Source: Luteimonas padinae
GTDB taxonomy: Bacteria; Pseudomonadota; Gammaproteobacteria; Xanthomonadales; Xanthomonadaceae
DNA length: 64,000 nucleotides
Assembly (NCBI RefSeq): GCF_014652935.1
Contig: NZ_BMZT01000008.1
Location: 1-64,000, forward strand
Direction of reading: 5' to 3'
Under the pieces are notes generated by a model. It worked only from the letters and a program-made list of their open reading frames with translations. It made no database searches and was not told where the DNA came from. The position numbers and the translations under genes were made by a program. Of this stretch, positions 52,518-64,000 are shown piece after piece; position 1 is the stretch's first letter, and every line of letters begins with the position of its first letter.

Positions 52518-52937
52518 CTGGGAGCGCCAAAAGTCGCCAATTGCACCTTGTTGCGCATCGCCCTAAGCAGATCATCAACTTAGAGGGAACTGAATGCCGA
52601 AAAACACGGTAGCCGCCACGTGGACAGGCAAATAGGATTGATGGCCTATCAAGATGCAGAAGGAGCGCCCCCAAAGAGCCGCCAGCCATCCCACGCGTTG
52701 AAACCGTCTTAAGAGAGGAAAAGCAGAAAGCCCAAGGGTTGCACCCCCTGGGCCTTCAAAGCGCTGACTTGCATCGCCACGCGTAGCTTATCCCCTCCTT
52801 GACCCCTTTTGTCAATGGCCCGGCGACGGGGTGGGGAAGTACTGCCCACCGTCCTTCCGGGGCATGGAACGTGGAGCAACCAACATGAGCACGCAGCTAA
52901 GCAAGTGCCTGGGTCACAGTGTGTGTGGAAGGAAGGC
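52518..52937. other. 420-base non-coding region upstream of tnsAB
   Basis: This AT-richer intergenic region separates the divergent unknown gene from tnsAB. It contains a hairpin at 52730-52753. In Tn7-like elements the right end, with several transposase-binding repeats, usually lies just upstream of tnsA, so the end could be here. By eye I see no unequivocal 20-22 base repeats or terminal TGT. An open frame to 52809 in the tnsAB frame lacks a ribosome site. Confidence 0.5.
52730..52753 (-). terminator. Terminator-like hairpin upstream of tnsAB, minus strand
   Basis: The outer stem GCCCA/TGGGC plus three inner G:C pairs, with a TTGCAC-type loop. On the minus strand it is followed by a T-rich run (tttctgctttt), the layout of an intrinsic terminator. 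No minus-strand gene ends here, so it may serve an unrecognised small RNA or be the remnant of a disrupted locus. Confidence 0.5.
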
Positions 52938-55388
52938 ATGACCGGGATCCCTCCTTCAGTCGATCCGGCCGTCTTCCTCGAAGCCGAAACTGAGGAACTG
53001 CTTACTTCGGCGTTACGCGCGAGTGTCTATGAACGGCTAGGACTCGCACAGTCTCAGCGCGACGAGCTGGAAGCGATGATCGAGGAGTCCCCCGCTCGGA
53101 AAGTGGCGCAGGCTGCGCTGAAGAACATCCGGGCGGCAGTCTGGTCAAAGAAGAATGGGGCAGTACGTATCGTCGAAAGCCATACCTGTGAGCTCGCCTT
53201 CCTATACAAACTAGAGCTGGACCCCGATGTGATTGGGTATTACACCCAAGTGTGCTGCAGTGGGATTGTCCGAGAACGCAATGGAAAACCACATGTCGGC
53301 GCTGCCACACTGGACTTCTTGGTCTTCAGAACCAACTCAATCGAACTGGTTGAGTGCAAGTACCAAGACTGGCTCAACGAAGAATGCGAGAACACGAAAT
53401 CGGACTACAAAAGGTCCGATTTAGGCTGGACTCATGCTCCATATTCAGAGCGAGCAGAGGCACTTGGGGTCCGCCTCAACATCTGGGCTCAGCGAACCCC
53501 GATGGGCATGTACCTGCAGAATCTGGAGGCGTGTTACGCGCTTCTAGGAGAGACGATCACGCGAGAAGAGCTTGCACTCTCCAAGCGCGTTAGTCGACTA
53601 CTCAAGCACTACCCATACTCCATTGAGACTCTCAATGCAGTCTATCCAAACTTCAACGAGCGGACGGTTCTGTGGATGCTGGCGAACCGCCATGCATTCG
53701 GTCTGATGCGTAGCTCTACCCCGATCGAACGGGATCGTTTCTTTCTTTTTAAGAACGAGTCGCATGCTTTGGCCGCCGATGCTGCATGCTACTCAACGCT
53801 TCGGGACGAGTTTGATCAACCACAGATTACCGATCCCGTCTTGACAGCAAGTGCCACCGATCTTGCTCATGCGGAACGGAGACTCAATCGACTCGAAGAA
53901 ATAGCGAAGCGGCCAGAACTCGCGACGGTGAGGATGGCGCAGCTCGCAAAAGCGGTGGCAGAAAAGGTGGCCGGCGGAATGTCGCCACTCGCTGCATGTC
54001 TTACGCAGTACCACAACTGTGGAAGCTCCACGCCGTCGCCGCTAACCAGTAAGCAGCGCCAAGGCATCCGCTATGTAATCAGCGATATCTGGAACAAGGG
54101 AAAAAGAAACTCAATTACCGAACTTCGTCGCGACCTGAAGGATTGGTGCGATGCCGAGGGCGAGCGCACGCCCTGCGCTACAACATTGGCCAATTACGTT
54201 GCCCGTGAGGATCCTCGAGTTCGCGCACTTTCGCGAGGTGGCTTCCGGAGCTACCACGCCGTTCGCCCACGAGCAGGCAGTGATAAGCGATCTCTTCCTC
54301 CCTTGGGATATGGCTATCTTCTGATCATTGACTCCTCAGGCTTCGACGCCCGCTGTGCACCAAACATACTCACACAGTTTCCCGCCGAGAAGCCCCGGTT
54401 CTACCTCGGAATTGACGGAGCCACCGGCGATGGGATGGCTCACTCGTTCATCTTTGGTGCGGCGAGAACTGATGGTATGGCCATACTGTTGCGCGAGTAT
54501 GTTCAGCGCCACGGCTTTCTTCCGAGGGCCATACAGGTGGATCGCGGGCCTGAGAACACATCAGATTGGCTCAAGCGCTTTTGTCGAGTTAAGGGAATTA
54601 CCCTGCGCCACACGCCAACGGGCGGTAGCCAATTCAATGGCGCGGCTGAGAACGCAATTAAGCAAGTCAATACACAGATTGCTCATCGGATCGCGGGAAG
54701 CTCTGAGCCAGACATGGCAGGACGAAAAGTAGACGGACGATTCAAGAGCCGCAAGACGGCACGTCATACCTTCGAGTGGATCCATACCGAATTTCTCGCA
54801 TATGTCTATGGGGATATTCCAAAGACGCCAGACGCAGAGGGCGTCACCCCAGAGGAGAAGAGAGAGGAAGTTCTAGCGACCGTAGGCTGCTTCGGTACGA
54901 CGTGTGAATTCGATGACGCGTTCCTGGTACACACCTCGATCACGTTTGATAAGAAGGCGAACGCTTCAGAGCGTTCCGGAGTGCGAACTGGAAGCGGCTA
55001 CTTCACGAGTGATGCCATGCAGCGTGCGCTGCGAGATGATCCCGTAGAAGAAGTTCGGTCTGATTGTGTTAACCCCTCCGTCCTGTGGGTAAAGGTAGGA
55101 CAGCGTTGGTGGAAAGCATTCCATCGCACTAGCCAGGCCTTGGCAGTACGTAGTCCGGTCTCACGTCTATTCGAGCTGCTGTTCAAACCCTATGCCCGTA
55201 AGAAGTGGCGTGAGGAACGCGAGGATGTCGCGTACGCACGCCACACGCGCCAGAAGAACGCGCTCGAAGCCGCCGCAGCGACGTCTCATCTTGGGCCCGA
55301 TAGCACCTCAAGCCCGGAGAGCCAGCCGGAGCCTGTGCGCACGGGGCGTCGAAAGGCGGTCGATTTCAGTTCCGCGCCCAAGTACTAG
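52938..55388 (+). CDS. TnsA-TnsB fusion transposase of a Tn7-like element
   Basis: This 816-residue protein has two parts. Residues about 50-240 are a TnsA-type endonuclease with catalytic candidates E85 (TCELAF), D126 (ATLDFLVF) and E139/K141 (LVECKY). Residues about 400-740 are a TnsB-type integrase with the DDE triad D465 (IIDSSGFD), D535 (QVDRGPEN) and E571 (FNGAAEN), the last two 35 residues apart. In Tn7, TnsB joins 3' ends and TnsA nicks 5' ends, giving cut-and-paste; a fusion would couple both. The ATG at 52938 follows GGAAGGAAGG. It is ten bases upstream of the TnsC-like gene. Codon use is unlike the backbone. Fused TnsAB occurs in some Tn7-like and I-B CAST elements; no cas genes are here. 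Confidence 0.9.
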   Translation: MTGIPPSVDPAVFLEAETEELLTSALRASVYERLGLAQSQRDELEAMIEESPARKVAQAALKNIRAAVWSKKNGAVRIVESHTCELAFLYKLELDPDVIGYYTQVCCSGIVRERNGKPHVGAATLDFLVFRTNSIELVECKYQDWLNEECENTKSDYKRSDLGWTHAPYSERAEALGVRLNIWAQRTPMGMYLQNLEACYALLGETITREELALSKRVSRLLKHYPYSIETLNAVYPNFNERTVLWMLANRHAFGLMRSSTPIERDRFFLFKNESHALAADAACYSTLRDEFDQPQITDPVLTASATDLAHAERRLNRLEEIAKRPELATVRMAQLAKAVAEKVAGGMSPLAACLTQYHNCGSSTPSPLTSKQRQGIRYVISDIWNKGKRNSITELRRDLKDWCDAEGERTPCATTLANYVAREDPRVRALSRGGFRSYHAVRPRAGSDKRSLPPLGYGYLLIIDSSGFDARCAPNILTQFPAEKPRFYLGIDGATGDGMAHSFIFGAARTDGMAILLREYVQRHGFLPRAIQVDRGPENTSDWLKRFCRVKGITLRHTPTGGSQFNGAAENAIKQVNTQIAHRIAGSSEPDMAGRKVDGRFKSRKTARHTFEWIHTEFLAYVYGDIPKTPDAEGVTPEEKREEVLATVGCFGTTCEFDDAFLVHTSITFDKKANASERSGVRTGSGYFTSDAMQRALRDDPVEEVRSDCVNPSVLWVKVGQRWWKAFHRTSQALAVRSPVSRLFELLFKPYARKKWREEREDVAYARHTRQKNALEAAAATSHLGPDSTSSPESQPEPVRTGRRKAVDFSSAPKY

Positions 55389-55398
55389 AGAAGAAGAG

Positions 55399-56400
55399 AT
55401 GCTTGAAATCATTCCGCACCGGAACTTCCTTGCCGCCCAAGCGAGGCTTCGTCGCGCCCTGACTGACCACCGGCCCGGGCGCCTTATAGTGGTGATCGGG
55501 GTAGGTGGAGTCGGGAAAACCACGCTGCGTTGGTCAGTCCTGCGGGAACTCTACGGCAACCCCAGGCACTGGGGGATTGGAAAGATACCCGTCATTGAAG
55601 TAATGGCCATTCTGGGTGCGAAGGCATACTTCAATAGCAAGGCGTTGGCTGAAGAAAGCCTCGACCAGTTGCATATGCCCGATCTCTCGTGGTTGACCAG
55701 AGGAGCCAAGACCACGCCCGAGATTGAGATGATCGAGGAGGCTTTGGCGGCATCGCGTGAATTCTGGAAGGGCGCCTCCAGAAACCTGACCGAAGCGGGG
55801 TCATGGAATGCATTCAAGAAGAATGCACGCGAGCGTGACATGAAGATCTTTAGTCTCGAGCATGCCTCCGCATTGTGCATCAACCATAAGGACACGCGGC
55901 CTGCTCAGCACATCATCAACCTGATGTCGATAATGGAAGCGACCGGGGCGATGGGGGTACTCACGACAATTCAGGATGGGGCCGCTCTTTGGAAGGGGCG
56001 CTCGGAAGTTCGGCGCCGCATGGATGTGATATGGATGGCTCCCTATGATGTCTCGAAGCCCGAAGATCTCAAATGTTACCTCGGGCTTCTAAAGCGTATT
56101 GCAGCACCCTACTCCTTTAACCCTCAGAATCTACTTGAGCGCTTGGCGCCAGAAATCGCGGCCGCAACAGCCGCTGTGTACGCGGAGATGGTGAATCTGT
56201 TCCAGAGAGCAGAGGAGAGCGCGCACGACGCCGGCCGGACAGAGTTAATCGAGGCGGACTTTCATGAGGCCTACTACAGTGCCGATGATCTTGAAACGCT
56301 GTGGAGCGATGTGGCCAGGTTCTGGGAAGTAAAGCGTTCCGACAAAGCGTCTGCAGTCACAGAGCGCGCCGACAAACTGTGGCCAACAGAAGATGAGTGA
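55399..56400 (+). CDS. TnsC-like AAA+ ATPase
   Basis: This 333-residue protein has a Walker A GVGGVGKTT at 34-42 and, where TnsC/TniB proteins have a DEAH-type Walker B, the odd sequence MKIFSLEHASALCINH. Later helices (GVLTTIQDGAALWKGRSEVRRRMDVIWMAPYD) match the sensor-2 part of TniB/TnsC. TnsC forms filaments on target DNA and recruits and activates the transposase. It follows tnsAB by ten bases with a GAAGAAGAG site and precedes tniQ by 48 bases, so the three form an operon. The open frame upstream of 55399 overlaps tnsAB and is not used. Confidence 0.85.
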   Translation: MLEIIPHRNFLAAQARLRRALTDHRPGRLIVVIGVGGVGKTTLRWSVLRELYGNPRHWGIGKIPVIEVMAILGAKAYFNSKALAEESLDQLHMPDLSWLTRGAKTTPEIEMIEEALAASREFWKGASRNLTEAGSWNAFKKNARERDMKIFSLEHASALCINHKDTRPAQHIINLMSIMEATGAMGVLTTIQDGAALWKGRSEVRRRMDVIWMAPYDVSKPEDLKCYLGLLKRIAAPYSFNPQNLLERLAPEIAAATAAVYAEMVNLFQRAEESAHDAGRTELIEADFHEAYYSADDLETLWSDVARFWEVKRSDKASAVTERADKLWPTEDE

Positions 56401-56448
56401 GCGATACAGCGCCGGCAGCGAAGAAATGTCGAACGCTCTTGATCGAGC

Positions 56449-57810
56449 ATGCGTTTGCATACATCTGTTGACAGCACGATGAGTGCCGTAAGCTCGAGCA
56501 TTCCGAACTGGACCGCGCTGCCGCCACTGCGACTGAGGGGGGTGGAGACGGGTCTTGTGGAGTCGCTTGATCACTACGCGCTGCGAATGGCGGATACGTG
56601 CGGTATCACACGGCCCGTGCTGGTGTCTCTCCTAAGAAGAAGCAAGGGGCTTCCTGCTGACGGTCAACATTCCCAGTATTTGTCCAGCTGGACGGGACCG
56701 CGTAGCGACTACCTCAAGCTTTTGGAGCCTCTCGCTGAAAAGAGCGGGCAAAGCGACCTATTTCGCGGAACATTCCACAACGTAGCAGAGGTTCTTGGAA
56801 GAGGCGGCCTTGCTTCGCGTACCGGTCGTGAATCCAGGCGGAGATGGTGTCCGCGCTGCTATTTGGATTGGGACGATGAATACAGCTATGAGCCTCTTGC
56901 GTGGGCGTTCAACATGCTGGCGGCCTGTCCTATCCACAACGTCTTTCTTGAAGGGGCGTGCCGTAACTGCGGACGGGAGCAGTCCTTTAATCGCAACTAT
57001 TCCTCCCGTCGCAGTTGCATGGGCTGCGACCGGCCACTTGGAGGTAAGGGTGAGGTCGCTCCGTTGATAGGGGAGCAATCGTGGATCGACGCACGGCTGG
57101 TAAGGTTCTCCCATTTCGTGGCGCGGTTGGACGAGAGCATCGAGCGTGCAACGTATGACGTGTTCTTGACAGCAATGCTGGAACGCCAGGAAGCTGGCGA
57201 GGTATTTCCGCCCGCTATTCGGCAGTACGTCAACGAGCAGCTAAGAACGCGTAAGTTGCGAGCATCGATTCCCACTATCACTCAGTACCTGAATATATGT
57301 GCGTTCCAGGGCACAGAGATTGAAGATCTGCTACTGGCACCCCGGGAAGCTGCGGCAATGCCATTGTTTGGCTGGGGAGAAGATTTTGGTCGTGTGAGGT
57401 TCGGGCGTCGGATACTGGCGCCTAAACTGCTGGAGATTGGCGCCTGTATGGAGGCACTTCTTGCGGACCCATCGATCCGACTACTGCCCATGGGCTTGTT
57501 AAGCCGCCACTTTGGACTATGGGGCGACGTTGTCCGTGACAACTTTCCAGATACACACCGCATGTACGTTGAAAGGCACGCTGCGCAGATGGGTGAGTTC
57601 ACAAGAGTTTACGAGCGCGCTGCCTTCGAGTGTGCCTTTCATATGCTTGATCACTGTAAGGACAAGGGGATCAGTGCTGCGACGGTGAAGAAGATTTGTG
57701 CCTCGGTTGCGGCGTTAACGAACGTCTCTCCATCGACAGCGGTTGAGTGTGTCAAGGCTGTAGTTCTTCTTCATAAGACGAGAAGGCGCATCAATTTGCG
57801 TGATTCGTGA
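56449..57810 (+). CDS. TniQ-family target-selection protein
   Basis: It is 453 residues from the ATG at 56449, with an alternative ATG at 56479; neither has a good ribosome site. The N-terminal TniQ domain runs LPPLRLRGVETGLVESLDHYALRMADTCGI...VLVSLLRR. A zinc-binding region follows with WCPRCYLDWD, AACPIHNVFLEGACRNCG and CMGCDRPLG, the double CxxC/CPxH pattern of TniQ/TnsD. The C-terminal 200 residues are helical. TniQ/TnsD proteins choose the target, by binding DNA (TnsD) or by joining Cascade. Length is between short CAST TniQ and TnsD (about 500), which favours direct DNA binding. It is the only target selector visible. Confidence 0.88.
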   Translation: MRLHTSVDSTMSAVSSSIPNWTALPPLRLRGVETGLVESLDHYALRMADTCGITRPVLVSLLRRSKGLPADGQHSQYLSSWTGPRSDYLKLLEPLAEKSGQSDLFRGTFHNVAEVLGRGGLASRTGRESRRRWCPRCYLDWDDEYSYEPLAWAFNMLAACPIHNVFLEGACRNCGREQSFNRNYSSRRSCMGCDRPLGGKGEVAPLIGEQSWIDARLVRFSHFVARLDESIERATYDVFLTAMLERQEAGEVFPPAIRQYVNEQLRTRKLRASIPTITQYLNICAFQGTEIEDLLLAPREAAAMPLFGWGEDFGRVRFGRRILAPKLLEIGACMEALLADPSIRLLPMGLLSRHFGLWGDVVRDNFPDTHRMYVERHAAQMGEFTRVYERAAFECAFHMLDHCKDKGISAATVKKICASVAALTNVSPSTAVECVKAVVLLHKTRRRINLRDS

Positions 57811-57887: not shown

Positions 57888-59024
57888 CTAGAGGGGCATA
57901 CCTGCGATCTTCTCGACCGATGCGACCACCCGATCTCCCAGACCTAACAGGCTGGGCGATTTGACACCGTCCCGAACGGTTCGGATCTTGTAAGTTCCGG
58001 ACGCCACCATTTGATAGGCCTTTGCCTCATCAGTCACGTGAATTGCGTTCTCTGAGCGGTGCATCTGCGCACCGCGTCGACTGAGCCTGAAGGCGCCATC
58101 GCCATACCGAATCGGGTAGATGTGCTCACCGCGGTATCCGCGAAGCACGAACGTTCTTGCCAGGCGATCTGAAGTGGCTCGCCGCCCTTTGCCTGTTGGG
58201 ACGTCCCTCGGAGGGAAGGAATCAGTATTCGTCTGGACTGCGGGGGGCGACGCAACCTGAGAAACAGTGCCGAGCTTGCGGAGCAGAATCCGCCGCCGTT
58301 CGTCAAGATCATCTGCATTGGTCTTGACCGAGAGTGCGTCCCGAGACTTCTTTCCGAGAAAGTAGGCAATGCGCTCGCTGTTCGTACCCGAGGGGTGCGG
58401 TAGCCCGTCCAGGCAGCGCTCGCGCGGTATCAGTCCAGCGTCTGCCAGCGTCAGCAGGACAGCGCGAGCCTCCTTTCCCAGAGCGATCCACCAAGCATTA
58501 TTGAGCTGCCGCACCTCTTCAACAAGCCAGAGTTCGGACATCTGGCGCAGAAGTGACGTCGACAGGATGGATGGGGCTCCTTGGTAGTCCTTCCCGTCGA
58601 GGAAGACCGGATAGCGCAGCGCTGAGGTGAAATGCACCAGGTCTGTGCGGTCTCCGAACAGTTCGCTGCAGGATGCGATGCCCAGCTTGCCCTGCAGTCC
58701 GATGCTGTCTAGCAGGGCAACCAGGCTAGTGCGCATCTGGCCTGAAAAGCTGGCGGTGGCTTTGGCAATGGCGAGGGCGTTGCTCTCACTATGGCCCGTG
58801 GCCAGGGCATCTCGCAGAGCGTCCAGAGCCTTTCTGGCTTGCTGTGTTCCCGGTGTCATCCCCAGCAGGACGACGCGTGCGTGGGGGTTGATATGGTCGA
58901 ACGGAGCGTAATGGCAGCTGAGGGTGCCCGAGCGCTCGATCAGAAGCGCTGGATCAGTCGGTGCAAGGCTTCGGTTGGACATGATAGTCGTGCGGAAGCG
59001 CCTGAGCAGTGAGGTCGTGGTCAT
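57888..59024 (-). CDS. Two-domain protein with a uracil-DNA-glycosylase-like N-terminal domain
   Basis: This 378-residue protein has UDG-superfamily motifs: VVLLGMTPG at 51-59 (motif A, the GxxPG loop), a central HFTSALRYPVF at 131-141 and LPHPSGTNSERI around H210 (motif B, HPSGxN). The usual catalytic Asp/His set cannot be fully assigned, so activity is uncertain. A separate C-terminal part (about 290-378: FVLRGYRGEHIYPIRYGDG, TYKIRTVRDG) is not recognised. AGGGGGA precedes the ATG at 59024. It lies 30 bases downstream of the HTH-like gene in one operon. The family has orphan members in defence islands; the function here is unknown. Confidence 0.65.
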   Translation of the reverse strand: MTTTSLLRRFRTTIMSNRSLAPTDPALLIERSGTLSCHYAPFDHINPHARVVLLGMTPGTQQARKALDALRDALATGHSESNALAIAKATASFSGQMRTSLVALLDSIGLQGKLGIASCSELFGDRTDLVHFTSALRYPVFLDGKDYQGAPSILSTSLLRQMSELWLVEEVRQLNNAWWIALGKEARAVLLTLADAGLIPRERCLDGLPHPSGTNSERIAYFLGKKSRDALSVKTNADDLDERRRILLRKLGTVSQVASPPAVQTNTDSFPPRDVPTGKGRRATSDRLARTFVLRGYRGEHIYPIRYGDGAFRLSRRGAQMHRSENAIHVTDEAKAYQMVASGTYKIRTVRDGVKSPSLLGLGDRVVASVEKIAGMPL

Positions 59025-59054
59025 GTTGAAGTCCCCCTGTATTCTGATGTTGGC

Positions 59055-59924
59055 CTAGTGGATGCTGTCGAGATCGGCACTGGCACGTGCGTCGGCGTGG
59101 GCAAGTGCGAGCAGTCGGTAGGTCTGTCTGGCGAACTCACCCGGCTGTGGCATGCCAGTGAATTCGGCGAACTGCTTGAGTAATGCTGGCGAAAGCGCCG
59201 TGAATGCAGCCTCGGGCTTGCGCGCCGCAATTGCAGCGAGTGCGTGCGTCACCTCCGCTGGCCACCCGTTCGTGCTGGCAAGAGTGGTGGCGTCGGTACC
59301 TGCGTGCTCTAACCAGCACTTGCAGGTCTGGGCCAGGGTCGCCGTATCGGTGATGAGCGGCTGATCGGGGCCATCGCCCCGAAATCGGGTGGGTTTGAAG
59401 TCCGGCCGGCGCGAGAGCCATGCCAAGGCATCTTCCGCCTTGATCCAGGCGCGATGCTTGCGGTTCTCCACGGGAATGGGGTTGGAAGCGCCTCGACTTG
59501 TGGCCGCACGTATTGTCTTTTCCGCGACGCCTGCAAGTGCGGCGAGCCACTCGATGCTCAACTCCTCATCGTCGTCGAGTGCGTGTCTCGCATGCGCCGC
59601 GTTGATCAGACGTTCCAGCGCCTGCTTCTGGCGGATGTCGATCAGATCGGTGCCATCCGGATGCATGAAGCCGGCCGGGAGCAGCTCGCTGATCGTGCCC
59701 ACTTCATGGAGTGCCGTAGCCAGCTGGCTCTGGCTACCGCGCCATTCGCCCTCCCAGGCGTAGACCGCTAGATCGCCGACGGTAGTAATGAGGTTCGTAA
59801 GGGAGTCCTCAGGGCTCTCGACGAGCACGGGACGCTTGCCGGTGATGACGCCCAGAACCTGAGTCATGGCGGACGCGAGTTCTTGGACGAGGGACTCAGC
59901 TTCGGAGCGGCTAAGGATGGTCAT
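59055..59924 (-). CDS. HTH-containing protein of unknown function
   Basis: It has 289 residues from the ATG at 59924. It begins with a helical region (SEAESLVQELASAMTQVLGV). In the middle a helix-turn-helix-like segment (LSIEWLAALAGVAEKTIRAATS) is followed by a short wing (HRAWIKAEDALAWLSRRPDF), typical of MerR/excisionase-like DNA binding. The C-terminal half is helical (TLAQTCKCWLEHAG; LLKQFAEFTGMPQPGEFARQTYRLLALAHADA). It is the first gene of a minus-strand operon with the UDG-like gene and is divergent from the DUF4258/methylase operon, so it could control that promoter region. No family name is recognised. Confidence 0.65.
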   Translation of the reverse strand: MTILSRSEAESLVQELASAMTQVLGVITGKRPVLVESPEDSLTNLITTVGDLAVYAWEGEWRGSQSQLATALHEVGTISELLPAGFMHPDGTDLIDIRQKQALERLINAAHARHALDDDEELSIEWLAALAGVAEKTIRAATSRGASNPIPVENRKHRAWIKAEDALAWLSRRPDFKPTRFRGDGPDQPLITDTATLAQTCKCWLEHAGTDATTLASTNGWPAEVTHALAAIAARKPEAAFTALSPALLKQFAEFTGMPQPGEFARQTYRLLALAHADARASADLDSIH

Positions 59925-60167
59925 TGAGGATATCCAGAATTGCTGTGTGACCACATTAGGCCCAGCGAGGCGGATGGTCAAGCGGGATATCGATGATGCC
60001 CATTCTCTCGCCAAGGATGGCACCTAGGACGCGCAAATTCATAGACTTACGCCGTGACGGATGGGATGACGTGCGGGCAGGCTAAAAAAGTTCAGGTTAT
60101 AGCACCAAAAGTATTGAACTACTGCACGCGATGAAGGATAGTACCCTCAAGCGAGGAGGGCGATGTG
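59925..60167. promoter_or_regulatory. Divergent promoter region of the two cargo operons
   Basis: 243 bases without genes. An inverted repeat AGTTCA...TGAACT with 20-base spacer lies at about 60090-60121, in an AT-rich patch, and could be an operator for the HTH protein encoded at 59055. No consensus -35/-10 pair is clear. Confidence 0.4.
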
Positions 60168-60422
60168 ATGTTCAAGAAGACCAGGCATATCGAGAAGCGC
60201 ATGTCCCAGCGTGGCATCAGCCAGGCAATGGTGGATCTGGTCCTGCGCTACGGAGAAGAAGGTCGCGCTGGGCGCGTCTTTCTCAATCGCAAATCCGTTT
60301 CCCAGCTGCTTCGGGACTACCGGGAGCTGATGCGGATCCTGGACAAGGGTGGCCTTGAGGTTGTGGTGGAAGGCGAGTCTCTGATCACGGCCTACAACCA
60401 TCACGGCCGGGGGCGCGCCTGA
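60168..60422 (+). CDS. DUF4258-family small protein
   Basis: It has 84 residues from the ATG at 60168, with GAGGAGGG eight bases upstream; a GTG one codon earlier is rejected. The sequence HIEKRMSQRGISQAMVDLVLRYGEE...LITAYNHHGRGRA matches the DUF4258 pattern: a small RelE/BrnT-like alpha/beta protein with an N-terminal H-x-x-x-R-M and C-terminal VITAY strand. Relatives are often linked to toxin or restriction loci. The next gene starts one base after its stop, so translation is probably coupled. Confidence 0.75.
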   Translation: MFKKTRHIEKRMSQRGISQAMVDLVLRYGEEGRAGRVFLNRKSVSQLLRDYRELMRILDKGGLEVVVEGESLITAYNHHGRGRA

Positions 60423-60423
60423 C

Positions 60424-62298
60424 ATGAAGACTGAAAGTGCTGGTCCCGTTCTCCGGCAGGTCCAAGACCCTCTTCGGGAGGCGGGCTTGCCTGTGCCTGC
60501 GAGCAGCATCGTTGCGCTCCAGCTGATCATCTGGTCCTACCTGTCTGAGGTTCAGCCGGCTCGAATTCCGGAAGGAACCCGGCTTCCAGAGGTTCTTCCG
60601 CATGGTCTCGCGGGTATCACCGAGGCTCTGGGCAAGATGGCAGCTGCCGGTGGTCTGCTCGGCCAGGCCTTCAACGAAGCGCCGGCATATGTGCGCATGG
60701 CAAGGGAGTCGCTGGTAACCGCTGCCGGCACGGCGGCTCGCTTGGCCAACAGCGGCATGTTCTCGCGGTTCCCCGCGGAAGAGATTCTGCACGTCGTGCT
60801 GGGGGATTCCCGTGAGTACCCGATGGTTTCATCCGAGCTCGCGACGCTGATGGCGAGCCTCGCCGTCGCCCCAGAGCATCAGACCGTCTATTGCCCTTGG
60901 GAAAGCACCGGACAACTCGTCGGCGAGTTGGCCGGGTACGACGCCCGTCTGCTTGTTGAGGCACCGTGGCAGACGTCGTTGCCGGCACTGATGGCATTGC
61001 TGCGTGTTTCCAGCACATCGGTTGTGCGGACCGACCCGTTGCGCAACCCCACGGCCGTGAAGGAAGGCCGCCTGGAGAAGTTCGACGCATGTCTCTCGTT
61101 CCCGCCAATGGGAATGAAAGTGAACGATGATGTCGCCCAAGACCTCTTCGGTCGGTTCACGGTAAGTAGGGCAACGAGCACGGGGCTCATGATCCAGCAC
61201 ATCGTTGCCCAGACCCATGGTCGAGCTGCGATCGTCGTTCCCAATAGCTTCCTGTTCGGACCAGGAAAAGATCGTGAGCTCCGCGAGCACCTGATCAGCC
61301 AAGGAATGGTTGAAGCAGTGATCGCGCTTCCCGCAGGCATCCATCAGACAACTTTGGTCCCCACGGCGTTGCTGCTGCTGAACACCACGGACAGGTTCGG
61401 ACAGATCCACTTCGTTGACGCTAGCTTGCCCTACTTCCTTGCAGACCCGGTGCGGGGGCGCCCCGTCCTCACTAAAGTCCATGAGATTCGGCGCTACTGC
61501 TTGTCGTCTGAGTCTAGTCCGTCGCCTGGGGTCTCGGAACTCGACGATGATCCGAGCCTTGCAGTCGTGGTCGGGACAAATGAGGTGCTGGCGAACGACG
61601 CCTCCCTCCAGGTGGATCGCTACGTGATGTCTGCAGAGCAACGCGATCTCAAGGCACAGATTGGATCCTTGCCTACGATCCCATTGGACGACATTGCGAC
61701 GTTCGTTCAGCCCGTTTCCAACAAGGACCGGGCGGCGGATAGCCCGACGGCCATTACGGTGTTCGAGGTGGGTGCAGCGGACATTCCAGAAACGGGTTAT
61801 ATCCGCAAGCCCGAGAAGGCTATCAGTATCCAACTATCCCCCCGGCGTGGCGGCGACCCCGAAGACGTGTTCCTGCGTCCTTACGATCTTGTGCTGATCG
61901 TCAAGGGAAGCGTGGGCAAGATCGGCGTGGTTCCCCGCAATGTGCCTCCAGCGGGTCCTGGTGGCTGGGTAGCGGGGCAATCCGCAGTTGTTCTTCGGAG
62001 CAAGTCCGCGACCAGCGACCTGCGCGGCCTTGCACTCTGGTTGCGGTCTCCGATGGGGCGCAAGCTCCTTGACACCATTCGATCCGGTGCGGCGATTCAG
62101 ATGCTGTCGATCAACGAGCTGAGGCGCCTCGGGTTCATCTCGGGGCTCGACTGGTGGAACGACGTGGCCGTTCAAGTGCTTGAGCAGGAAGACGAGCTAC
62201 AGCATCAGATCGAAATCCTCCAGGACAAGCAGACCAGCATCGCGGAAGACCTTTGGGGAAAGCTCAGAACTTCTGCTAAAGAACTCGCGAGCAAGTAG
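60424..62298 (+). CDS. Pseudo-HsdM fused to a specificity-like domain
   Basis: This 624-residue protein follows the layout of type I N6-adenine methylases (N-terminal helical domain, class I fold about 130-400), but its key motifs are altered: the SAM-site DPxxGxGG is C157PWESTGQ and the catalytic NPPF is F226[40 protein letters not shown] is still clearly HsdM-like. From about residue 420 a target-recognition-like domain follows, with [18 protein letters not shown] at 487 and a terminal coiled coil ([16 protein letters not shown]), as in HsdS. It is probably inactive as a methylase but able to bind DNA. It sits between DUF4258 (1 base) and HsdM (47 bases). Confidence 0.8.
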
Positions 62299-62345
62299 TC
62301 GGCACCGCGGCCCGCACGACATCAACTAGAGAACAGAAAGAAGAC

Positions 62346-64000
62346 ATGCCTCTTACCCTGCCTCAGCTCGAACGACACCTCTTCAAGGCCGCTGACATCC
62401 TGCGCGGCAAGATGGACGCCAGTGAGTTCAAGGAATACATCTTCGGCATGCTGTTCCTCAAGCGCTGTTCGGACGTATTCGACCAGCGCCGCGAAGAAGT
62501 CGTCGCGGAACGCATGGCTGCAGGCGAATCCGACCAGCAAGCGCGAGAATCGGCCGAGAACCCCCGATGGTACCGGCGCGCCGGCTCGTTCTGGGTGCCG
62601 CCGCAGTCGCGCTACCCCTACCTGCTCAATGAAGCCCACCAGAACGTCGGTGACTTCCTCAACAAGGCACTGACGGGCATCGAATCCGGCAACGTCAGCC
62701 TGGCCGACGTGCTCGAGCACATCGACTTTACCCGCAAGGTTGGCCAGAGCAAGATTCCCGACCAAAAGCTGCGCCAACTGATCACGCACTTCGGCAAGTA
62801 TCGGTTGCGCAATGAGGACTTCGAGTTTCCCGATCTGCTCGGCGCGGCCTACGAGTATCTGATCGGTGAGTTCGCTGACTCCGCCGGCAAGAAGGGCGGC
62901 GAGTTCTACACTCCGCGCTCGGTGGTGCGGATGATGGTGCGCCTGCTCAAGCCGCAGGTGGAGCACCACATCTATGACCCCTGCGTCGGCTCAGGCGGCA
63001 TGCTGATCCTGGCCAAGGAATACATCGATGAACACGGCCAGGATGGTCGCAAGGCAAACCTGTACGGGCAGGAGTTCAACGGTACAGTCTGGTCTATCGC
63101 CAAGATGAACATGCTGCTGCACGGCATCGAGAACGCATCGCTTGAGAACGACGATACGCTGGAAACTCCGCGTCACGTTGTAAATGGGGAGTTGCAGCGC
63201 TTCGACCGCGTGCTCAGCAATCCACCGTTCTCGATTAACTGGGGCACCACGGACACTGGCGCGGACGGTCAGCCGGTGTGGGCGCCGAGGTTCCCGGAAC
63301 GCTTCCGCCATGGGCAGGTCAAGCTTGGCAGCAAGAAGGCCGACCTGATGTTCCTGCAGCACATGCTGGCGGTCACCCGTGACGGCGGCATGGTCGCCAC
63401 GGTGATGCCGCATGGCGTTCTGTTCCGCGGTGGCGAGGAAGCGGCCATTCGAAGGAGCATCGTTGAAGATGACCTGCTGGAAGCGGTGATTGGCGTAGCG
63501 CCCAACCTGTTCTACGGTACCGGCATCCCGGCCTGTATCCTGGTACTGCGCCAGCAGGTGGCGGAGGGTGCCAACCGGGTCAGCGGCAAGCCCGAAGCGC
63601 GACGGGGCAAGGTGCTTTTCATCAACGCCGACCGCGAGTTTTGCGAGGGGCGCGCGCAGAACTTCCTACTGCCGGAGCACATCGAGAAGGTCGTCAGCAC
63701 CTTCGACCAGTTCGCGGGAGTGCCTGGGTTCTCCGCCATTGTCGACAACACCACGCTGCTGGATAACGGCTGCAACCTCAATATCCGCCGCTATGCCGAC
63801 AACGCACCGGAGCCGGAACCGCACGATGTGCGCGCGCACCTGATCGGCGGAGTGCCGAAGGCGGAAGTGCAGTCCGAGGCCAAGGTAGCGTTGTTTCAGG
63901 CACATGGTCTCGATCCCACCGACATGTTCATCGAAGTCGACGCGAAATACTTTGATTTCCGACCCGAACTACAGAGGCGCGACGACCTCAAGCTCGCCAT
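62346..64000 (+). CDS. hsdM: Type I restriction-modification DNA methyltransferase subunit HsdM (partial)
   Basis: The ATG at 62346 begins [45 protein letters not shown], the standard HsdM N-terminus. The frame stays open to the window end (551 residues seen). [17 protein letters not shown], the SAM-binding D211PCVGSGGM and catalytic N292PPF are intact, so it should methylate adenine N6 with a specificity partner. A typical HsdM is about 500-650 residues plus variable tail. No hsdS precedes it; the fused pseudo-HsdM upstream, or a gene beyond the window, may give specificity. An hsdR would be expected further right. Confidence 0.93.

What the first reader, a model, noticed from the sequence alone, without database searches (positions are those of the whole stretch)
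60168..64000. Type I-like modification locus with a dead HsdM fused to a target-recognition domain
The gene at 60424 keeps the HsdM fold pattern but has lost both the SAM motif (CPWESTGQ) and the catalytic NPPF (FPPM). It gains an HsdS-like recognition half. It lies between a DUF4258 protein and an intact HsdM. A pseudo-methylase/specificity hybrid could pair with the active HsdM as a heterodimer, replacing the usual M2S complex. I do not know a described system of this order.
Basis: partly seen in the sequence, partly recalled or inferred. Interest (0 to 1): 0.75.

Follow-up and report, generated by a model that had tools for sequence, protein, structure and literature searches.

The report
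Dead DNA methylase turned gene regulator
A conserved bacterial DNA-modification protein that has lost its catalytic parts but kept its DNA-reading part travels with a small toxin-like protein and sits beside many different restriction systems, and a shared DNA site in front of the pair suggests that it now works as a regulator.

Summary
The 60424 gene (624 aa, "MS") is a dead HsdM fused to one HsdS half. It is not decay: none of 16 members examined keeps NPP[FYW] or motif I, and two sister loci give dN/dS 0.095. A DUF4258-like gene lies directly upstream in 15 of 20 family loci (13 of the 18 not found through DUF4258). Across nine loci DUF4258 and MS vary together (r 0.46), neither with HsdM/S/R. 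In one sister pair HsdS has different recognition domains while MS is 81% identical. An interrupted palindrome, GTA-N5/6-TAC, lies upstream in 10 of 11 typical loci (12 of 20 overall; 25 of 1,824 background windows). It precedes MS in two plasmids lacking DUF4258 and is missing at 5 of 5 DUF4258 loci lacking MS. Homodimeric M~S methylases are reported to read such sites. Best reading: MS is a catalytically dead, DNA-binding autoregulator, perhaps the antitoxin, of a toxin-antitoxin-like pair that joins unrelated type I R-M systems. DNA binding and toxicity are inferred, not shown.

The parts
60108..60123 (+). Proposed operator: AAAGTATTGAACTACT, containing the interrupted palindrome GTA-N6-TAC (60111-60122)
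   Evidence: Equivalent GTA-N5/6-TAC lies upstream of 10 of 11 typical loci versus 25 of 1,824 background windows; the extended pattern occurs once in the 3.1 Mb genome, and its reversed control pattern also once
60114..60142 (+). Possible promoter: TTGAAC (60114-60119, inside the palindrome), 17-nt spacer, GATAGT (60137-60142)
   Evidence: Read by eye; below the threshold of the promoter scan (0 found). Among the other nine typical loci with the palindrome, TTGA follows it by 0-3 nt in four and not in five
60165..60422 (+). DUF4258-like small protein (85 aa), putative toxin of the RelE/ParE (BECR) superfamily
   Evidence: Pfam DUF4258 24.4 bits, cut-off 25; 7 of 10 relatives exceed the cut-off, 5 of the 8 that sit beside MS; invariant T.H, R..QRG, DKGG..VV and T.YN residues in seven aligned; model pLDDT 88.7, but no BECR fold found by Foldseek
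60424..62298 (+). MS: pseudo-HsdM fused to one HsdS half (624 aa)
   Evidence: AlphaFold2 model pLDDT 78.0; best PDB match 7eew, a type I MTase, E 2e-18
60883..60918 (+). Former SAM motif I of MS ([12 protein letters not shown]; DPxxGSGG lost, YxPWD/E common instead)
   Evidence: Alignment with neighbouring HsdMs
61099..61110 (+). Former catalytic motif IV of MS (FPPM in place of NPPF)
   Evidence: 0 of 14 MS proteins keep NPP[FYW]; 11 of 11 neighbouring HsdMs do
61666..62133 (+). Single target-recognition half of MS (residues about 415-570), the most conserved part of the family
   Evidence: Mean pairwise identity 41.6% versus 34.2% (pseudo-M), 28.2% (C-terminal helix) and 21.5% (N-terminal part), nine loci
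62149..62292 (+). Long C-terminal helix of MS (residues 576-623), like the HsdS dimerisation helix
   Evidence: Secondary structure of the model
62346..64000 (+). Intact hsdM (832 aa; runs on to contig position 64844)
   Evidence: HsdM_N and N6_Mtase; motifs DPCVGSGG and NPPF. hsdS 64837-66117, hsdR 66117-69461 and an SprT-like gene 69458-70156 lie beyond the window on contig C8

Best explanation
MS is a catalytically dead methylase of the one-chain, one-recognition-domain (M~S half) kind. It has been kept as a sequence-specific DNA-binding protein. It forms a two-gene, toxin-antitoxin-like module with the DUF4258 protein encoded just upstream. A dimer of MS, joined through its C-terminal helix, binds the interrupted palindrome GTA-N5/6-TAC at the promoter in front of the pair. 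It thereby controls that operon, which in the window also carries hsdM-hsdS-hsdR, and it probably also neutralises DUF4258. Shown by computation: the conserved loss of the catalytic motifs, the frequent gene pairing, purifying selection in a sister pair, independence from the R-M partner, and a conserved palindrome that tracks MS. Inferred: that MS binds the palindrome (about 0.7), that it represses rather than activates (about 0.6), that DUF4258 is a toxin and MS its antitoxin (about 0.45).
For: Dead in every member examined: 0 of 14 plus 0 of 2 keep NPP[FYW]; motif I is lost in all 16 by alignment; 11 of 11 neighbouring HsdMs keep NPP[FY]. Under selection: two sister loci give dN/dS 0.095 for MS and 0.066 for its dead M part. 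Pairing: DUF4258 within about 200 bp upstream in 15 of 20 family loci; two of these (Synechococcus, Roseomonas) were found by a DUF4258 search, and without them it is 13 of 18. Independent module: DUF4258-MS r=0.46, p=0.03; DUF4258 or MS versus HsdM/S/R r from -0.01 to 0.13, none significant; HsdM/S/R among themselves 0.82-0.97 (nine loci). The recognition half is the most conserved part of MS. In sisters L100/L101 the HsdS recognition blocks are 14-32% alike while MS is 81% identical (its recognition half 86%) and the palindrome GTAGCGTGCTAC is unchanged. Palindrome: 8 of 9 loci within 120 bp, family-wise 0 of 3,000 shuffles; then 2 of 2 complete loci found afterwards by protein profile; background 25 of 1,824 windows. 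It tracks MS: present before MS in two plasmids lacking DUF4258, absent in 5 of 5 DUF4258 loci lacking MS (5 of the 10 such plasmid records). Homodimeric M~S methylases read interrupted palindromes (PMC3874165, passage).
Against: No binding or toxicity data. The window copy has no Pfam Methylase_S hit. The DUF4258 model has no Foldseek match with E <= 0.001 and no RelE/BECR structure among the 50 matches listed. Over all 20 family loci the palindrome is present in 12: it is missing in Sulfuricurvum (GTTA-N5-TAAC instead), Cupriavidus (GTA-N7-TAC), Roseovarius, Roseomonas, Synechococcus, Annamia, Aliivibrio and the fragment locus L102. A promoter-like TTGA just after the site is seen in only four of ten typical loci, plus inside the window's site. 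DUF4258 genes of the same subfamily elsewhere sit before unrelated genes (LRAT-like, MsyB-like), so the downstream gene need not be an antitoxin. The motif was first seen by eye in these loci; window length and one start codon were chosen by me. Site distance to the ORF start differs (-28 to -79), so repression and activation cannot be told apart.
Confidence: 0.55

Rival explanations
1. Guard of restriction (PrrC-like): DUF4258 is a latent RNase held by MS; MS docks on or watches the neighbouring type I enzyme, and phage anti-restriction proteins release the toxin.
For: Type I R-M genes lie beside the pair in 14 of 20 family loci, in Roseomonas with only hsdS annotated. DUF4258 belongs to a list of BECR-fold toxin families, with unknown target (PMC11980606, passages). 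PrrC and PARIS are described as R-M guardians (PMC12707154, passages). MS has an HsdM-like fold.
Against: The pair also occurs without type I genes within 6 kb (Synechococcus). No co-variation with any R-M subunit. DUF4258 toxicity and fold unproven.
Confidence: 0.2
2. One reading: MS pairs with the active HsdM as part of a hybrid modification enzyme with its own specificity.
For: Fold is that of HsdM plus half HsdS; a type I system with two different M subunits exists (PacII M1M2S, PMC9613975, passages).
Against: Complete hsdM-S-R present; MS is uncorrelated with HsdM and lies beside HsdMs as little as 18% alike; PacII M1 has NPPF and M2 has NPPY, MS has neither.
Confidence: 0.1
3. DUF4258, not MS, is the DNA-binding regulator (as the small first-gene repressor RptR is), and MS does something else.
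For: RptR is a 9-kDa first-gene repressor linked to type I systems (PMC12255303, abstract and passages); DUF4258 is small and first here.
Against: The palindrome is absent upstream of 5 of 5 examined DUF4258 genes without MS and present before MS in two of four loci without DUF4258. RptR's site is TAGCTA and RptR is all-helical; the DUF4258 model is alpha/beta.
Confidence: 0.1
4. MS is a dominant-negative or decoy subunit that dampens methylation or restriction.
For: Dead M part and single recognition half could poison M2S assembly (inference; dead motifs).
Against: Same MS family beside unrelated R-M families, no co-variation; its recognition half does not follow HsdS specificity.
Confidence: 0.05

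Closest known systems
Vibrio vulnificus YJ016 intact type I MTase (PDB 7EEW; one M domain plus one half S, dimeric, as recalled)
   Same: Best fold match of MS; sequence alignment covers both the methylase and the recognition part, and its motif IV reads SGVPFG rather than NPPF
   Different: Keeps motif I (VYDPAMGTGG); only 56.7 bits to the MS profile; its gene neighbourhood was not examined here
Homodimeric gamma-MTases (M.DrdI, M.XmnI, M.XcmI) and 'Type 1 1/2' MTases (M.AhdI)
   Same: One catalytic unit per recognition unit; homodimers read interrupted palindromes (PMC3874165, passages and section 35)
   Different: They methylate, and in Type 1 1/2 enzymes M and S are separate chains; MS lacks motif I and motif IV
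Controller (C) proteins and RptR, regulators encoded in R-M loci
   Same: Regulator gene next to R-M genes with palindromic sites at its own promoter (PMC12255303, passages; C proteins recalled)
   Different: Those are small DNA-binding proteins; MS is a 600-residue ex-methylase. RptR's site TAGCTA differs
EcoprrI-PrrC and PARIS guardians of restriction
   Same: Toxin-like gene tied to an R-M locus or to R-M inhibition (PMC3874165 and PMC12707154, passages)
   Different: Toxin candidate and partner are of other families; no guard function shown
DUF4258 toxin-antitoxin genes (e.g. DUF4258-MqsA fusions)
   Same: DUF4258 protein in a tight unit with a partner (PMC11980606, passages)
   Different: Partner is a dead methylase-specificity fusion, not a small antitoxin
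PacII M1M2S non-canonical type I MTase
   Same: Two different M-type subunits in one locus; best sequence match in the PDB
   Different: Both PacII M subunits carry NPP[FY] and form one complex with HsdS (PMC9613975, passages)

Membership tests
Gamma-class N6-adenine methyltransferase (HsdM-like) | SAM-binding motif I and catalytic NPP[FYW] | tested here: not met
   0 of 14 MS proteins and 0 of 2 further ones. Motif I was judged on the alignment; the strict text pattern for it also misses several active-looking HsdMs
Gamma-class N6-adenine methyltransferase (HsdM-like) | Overall fold and family profile | tested here: met
   N6_Mtase 79.4 bits, cut-off 20.4; Foldseek to HsdM structures
Homodimeric M~S (one recognition domain) methylase | Single TRD plus C-terminal dimerisation helix on the M chain | tested here: met
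   Methylase_S above cut-off in five of six relatives; helix 576-623 in the model; dimerisation itself not tested
Homodimeric M~S (one recognition domain) methylase | Methylates an interrupted palindrome | not testable with these tools
   Catalytic residues are lost; a candidate palindrome exists upstream
Type I R-M system | hsdM, hsdS and hsdR together | tested here: met
   Neighbouring genes only; MS is an extra component
R-M controller / autorepressor | Conserved operator-like site at its own promoter | tested here: met
   10 of 11 typical loci versus 25 of 1,824 background windows; 12 of 20 loci overall
R-M controller / autorepressor | Binds the operator and changes transcription | not testable with these tools
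   Needs EMSA and a reporter
Type II toxin-antitoxin with a DUF4258 toxin | Toxin belongs to DUF4258 | tested here: inconclusive
   7 of 10 relatives above the Pfam cut-off; window copy 24.4 versus 25.0; no BECR fold match
Type II toxin-antitoxin with a DUF4258 toxin | Toxicity and neutralisation by the partner | not testable with these tools
   Experiment needed
PrrC-like guard of restriction | PrrC homologue | not tested
   No PrrC profile was run on its own. The PADLOC scan of ten window and operon proteins listed no PrrC hit; its lists for HsdM and HsdS were cut at 25 rows

The most novel reading that the evidence does not exclude
A toxin-antitoxin module whose antitoxin and repressor is a dead restriction methylase: it keeps the methylase's recognition half to read its own operator, holds a RelE-like toxin, and clips onto unrelated type I R-M systems as a portable guard that arms the toxin when restriction is attacked.
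Probability: 0.25. Interest if true: 0.88.

Novelty: new variant of a known kind. Interest (0 to 1): 0.72.

Why it matters
Few regulators of type I R-M systems and few guards of restriction are known to me (recalled; reviews seen in passages only). Here a restriction methylase seems to have been turned into a fixed-specificity DNA-binding protein and carried, with a toxin-like partner, from one R-M family to another across Pseudomonadota, Campylobacterota and Cyanobacteriota. The predicted operator makes this directly testable with one protein and one short DNA. It also warns that "N-6 DNA methylase" and "subunit M/S" annotations in such loci should not be read as active methylases.

Tried and rejected
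Decayed copy: rejected (motifs lost in 16 of 16 members examined, while the rest of the protein is conserved; dN/dS 0.095 in a sister pair). The Cupriavidus copy, by contrast, is broken by frame changes.

Chance palindrome: rejected by the family-wise shuffle test over 64 half-sites and seven spacer classes (0 of 3,000) and by two complete loci found later. The third locus looked at, the fragment L102, does not have it. The binomial values printed treat loci as independent and are not used; L100 and L101 are related to each other.

Phage origin: tblastn in phages gave 12 records, none covering 80%; the viral contig scan gave no relative.

Ends of the Tn7-like element: no convincing inverted-repeat pair (two 13-bp matches at E 0.72); no tRNA in L004.

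BECR fold for DUF4258 by structure: not found; the second aligner was not available.

Rows dropped or corrected: alignment A4 held one Annamia ORF that is not DUF4258; the hit to it is circular and vanishes when that row is removed. Magnetospirillum's predicted hsdM ORF is short (439 aa) and lacks the motif I part. Aromatoleum's 'HsdR' is the DEAD/DEAH helicase gene. The Oscillatoria DUF4258 start was moved to an internal ATG. The text pattern for motif I also missed five active-looking HsdMs besides Magnetospirillum's, so only the alignment is used. One match of 152 bits over the methylase part alone (G879) and those up to 143.5 bits were taken as ordinary HsdMs without follow-up, except three. 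Two distant M-S halves without DUF4258 (L105, L106) and one 1,387-aa fusion with intact NPPW (L107) were looked at and left out of the 20-locus count; L106 holds an NPPW string about 24 residues before the place that I take, by eye, for motif IV. The fetched stretch L006 (second hsdM region of the genome) was not analysed.

Limits of the rarity figures: genome searches scored only the best three or four candidates of each genome as a rule, so members could be missed.

Literature: ten searches of an open-access library (of these 61, 62 and 84 asked about other things) showed, in the listings and the passages named, no description of this pair. Subscription papers were not searched.
Full report
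What is there. The window is positions 1-64000 of a 196-kb contig of a 3.1-Mb genome. Reading past the window end shows that hsdM is 832 aa and is followed with overlaps by hsdS (426 aa), hsdR (1,114 aa) and an SprT-like gene (232 aa). Pfam and PADLOC models confirm the R-M genes. So a complete type I system is there and MS is an extra gene in front of it.

MS is a dead methylase fused to one recognition half. Pfam N6_Mtase fits at 79.4 bits but only over profile positions 110-310. Five of six relatives scanned add a Methylase_S domain above its cut-off. The AlphaFold2 model (pLDDT 78.0, six sequences) best matches, among solved structures, the V. vulnificus type I MTase 7EEW (E 2e-18), then PacII M subunits and other HsdMs. 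In sequence, motif I (DPxxGSGG) has become YxPWD/E in most members and NPPF has become FPPM or similar.

It is a family, not a relic. With the window protein, a plasmid search gave two matches covering at least 80% of the query (Aromatoleum, Oscillatoria) and several partial ones; with the Sapientia protein, three. A genome-contig scan gave six relatives: Silanimonas 48%, Sapientia, an alphaproteobacterial MAG, Paucibacter, Magnetospirillum, Cupriavidus. Profile searches of further genomes gave two full-length members and one fragment. Taking all that score at least 158 bits against the family profile, and counting the broken Cupriavidus copy, the fragment and the two split copies as one locus each, I have 20 loci. 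None of 16 members examined keeps NPP[FYW], and motif I is lost in all 16 by alignment (14; two). All 11 neighbouring HsdMs examined keep NPP[FY]. The two sister loci L100 and L101 give dN/dS 0.095 for MS, 0.066 for its dead M part and 0.135 for DUF4258.

The family is rare. Apart from the genome used as centre, samples drawn from the window's class (369 genomes), phylum (398) and order (299) and from Magnetospirillum's class (308) gave no further match of that level. The order of Sapientia gave one fragment in 300 and the family of Paucibacter two members in 280. As a rule only three or four candidates per genome were scored, so these are lower bounds.

The partner gene. A DUF4258-like gene lies within about 200 bp upstream of MS, same strand, in 15 of 20 loci: window, Silanimonas, Aromatoleum, Sapientia, alphaproteobacterial MAG, Paucibacter, Magnetospirillum, Cupriavidus, Oscillatoria, Sulfuricurvum, Roseovarius, Roseomonas, Synechococcus, L100, L101. 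Roseomonas and Synechococcus were found by searching with DUF4258; without them it is 13 of 18. In L102 it is 1.4 kb upstream of the fragment. It is not found in the Geminocystis, Cyanobacterium Dongsha4, Annamia and Aliivibrio loci. Seven of ten relatives pass the Pfam DUF4258 cut-off (five of the eight beside MS); three and the window copy do not. DUF4258 is listed among BECR-fold toxin families with unknown target (PMC11980606, passages). Against this, the model of the window protein (pLDDT 88.7) found no BECR structure, and the same small protein also precedes quite different genes on Aeromonas and Acinetobacter plasmids.

Two modules, not one. Type I R-M genes sit next to the pair in 14 of the 20 loci, but they are of different kinds. 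Across nine loci (36 pairs) HsdM, HsdS and HsdR similarity rise and fall together (r 0.82-0.97). DUF4258 and MS do so with each other (r 0.46, p 0.03). Between the two groups r runs from -0.01 to 0.13, none significant. Single pairs make the point: window and Oscillatoria HsdM 62% but MS 29%; Silanimonas and Paucibacter HsdM 82% but MS 31%; alphaproteobacterial MAG and Magnetospirillum MS 52% and DUF4258 67% but HsdM 23%.

The recognition half does not follow the R-M specificity. It is the best conserved part of MS (mean 41.6%, against 34.2% for the pseudo-M part and 21.5% for the N-terminal part), whereas whole HsdS averages 20.6% in the same loci; that HsdS figure mixes unrelated R-M families, so the sister pair is the cleaner test. 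In L100 and L101 HsdM is 87% and HsdR 91% identical. HsdS is 35% identical overall: 50-residue blocks of 14-32% in the recognition domains and 75-80% in the conserved helices, which points to exchanged recognition domains. MS there is 81% identical, its recognition half 86%.

A candidate target. Upstream of DUF4258 in 8 of the 9 first loci, within 120 bp, lies GTA-N5/6-TAC. An A-tract often precedes it. A TTGA hexamer start follows within 0-3 nt in four of ten typical loci and lies inside the window's site; the other five have none there. I saw the motif by eye first. A test over all 64 three-base half-sites and seven spacer classes, on 3,000 dinucleotide-preserving shuffles, never reached 8 (largest 7; for this motif mean 0.53, largest 4). 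Two complete loci found later by protein profile alone both carry GTAGCGTGCTAC, while the sequence just upstream of that site has diverged between them; the fragment locus L102 lacks it. Together 10 of 11 typical loci have it, against 25 of 1,824 other 120-bp windows of the same loci; in four loci it is the only such site in the whole 14-22 kb. Aromatoleum and Oscillatoria have two copies. The exception, Sulfuricurvum, has GTTA-N5-TAAC at a similar place. The site goes with MS, not with DUF4258: two cyanobacterial plasmids without DUF4258 have it in front of MS near a TTGACA hexamer, and 5 of 5 examined DUF4258 genes without MS (of 10 such plasmid records) lack it in 400 bp. Cupriavidus, Roseovarius, Roseomonas, Synechococcus, Annamia and Aliivibrio lack it. 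Over all 20 loci it is present in 12. The extended form AAAGTA-N6-TACT occurs once in the window's genome, at 60108, as does its reversed control pattern.

Mechanism. One-chain, one-recognition-domain methylases act as homodimers and read interrupted palindromes (M.DrdI, M.XmnI; PMC3874165, passages and section 35). An engineered HsdM-half-HsdS fusion also dimerises and reads a palindrome (PMC6158711, passages). A protein of that build which has lost catalysis but kept its recognition half under the strongest conservation, with a matching palindrome upstream of its own operon, is most simply an autoregulatory DNA-binding protein. With a toxin-family gene directly upstream, toxin-antitoxin logic is the natural next step, but that step is inferred. 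Why it associates with type I systems is open: shared regulation of one operon (as in the window) or a guard role as for PrrC and PARIS (PMC12707154, passages).

Novelty. PADLOC and NCBIfam gave MS only general type I/II methylase, specificity or MADS matches, the NCBIfam ones far below their cut-offs. Public annotation calls some members 'type I restriction-modification system subunit M/S', so the M-S build is noticed, though not its dead state. Ten literature searches (three of them on other points) listed no paper describing the pair; the library is open-access only. The build is known; its dead, regulatory, toxin-paired use is, as far as I could find, not described.

Noticed in passing
window 52809-57810: Genes of a Tn7-like transposon lie upstream: a long protein with an N-terminal TnsA-like part (by eye) and an rve/IS481-like integrase part (sub-cut-off hits), an AAA ATPase (TnsC-like by position; sub-cut-off hits), and TniQ (Pfam above cut-off). 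Ends were not found, so whether the R-M locus is its cargo is open.
   Followed up: partly
window 57888-60023 (minus strand): Two genes divergent from the DUF4258-MS operon: a protein with a sub-cut-off uracil-DNA-glycosylase match and a possible HTH protein. A relative of the second lies near the DUF4258 gene of L102 (29% over 137 aa).
   Followed up: no
L039:11443-11863 and L043:4169-4589: In both cyanobacterial plasmids the MS N-terminus and body appear to be in different frames, with the change at a run of nine T's in the same place: programmed slippage or phase variation? (by eye)
   Followed up: no
L042:9387-11089 and L086:6238-8132: MS is split into two overlapping ORFs at about the former catalytic loop in Roseovarius and Roseomonas, as if that loop no longer matters.
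   Followed up: partly
L084:5995-8813: Synechococcus elongatus plasmid: DUF4258 - divergent MS - Swt1-type HEPN gene with no annotated type I genes within 6 kb, so the pair can live without R-M next door.
   Followed up: no
L102:6897-11175: DUF4258, then an MS fragment joined in frame to a DEAD helicase: apparently a deletion remnant.
   Followed up: no
PDB 7eew chain A: The solved V. vulnificus M-S-half 'MTase' reads SGVPFG where NPPF should be, while keeping motif I; its own catalytic competence and gene neighbourhood deserve a look.
   Followed up: no
L105:7910-9580, L106:7125-8882: Two more distant proteins of the M-S-half build that seem to lack the catalytic motif and have no DUF4258 nearby, one beside hsdS/hsdR-like genes: dead M-S halves may be a wider class.
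   Followed up: partly
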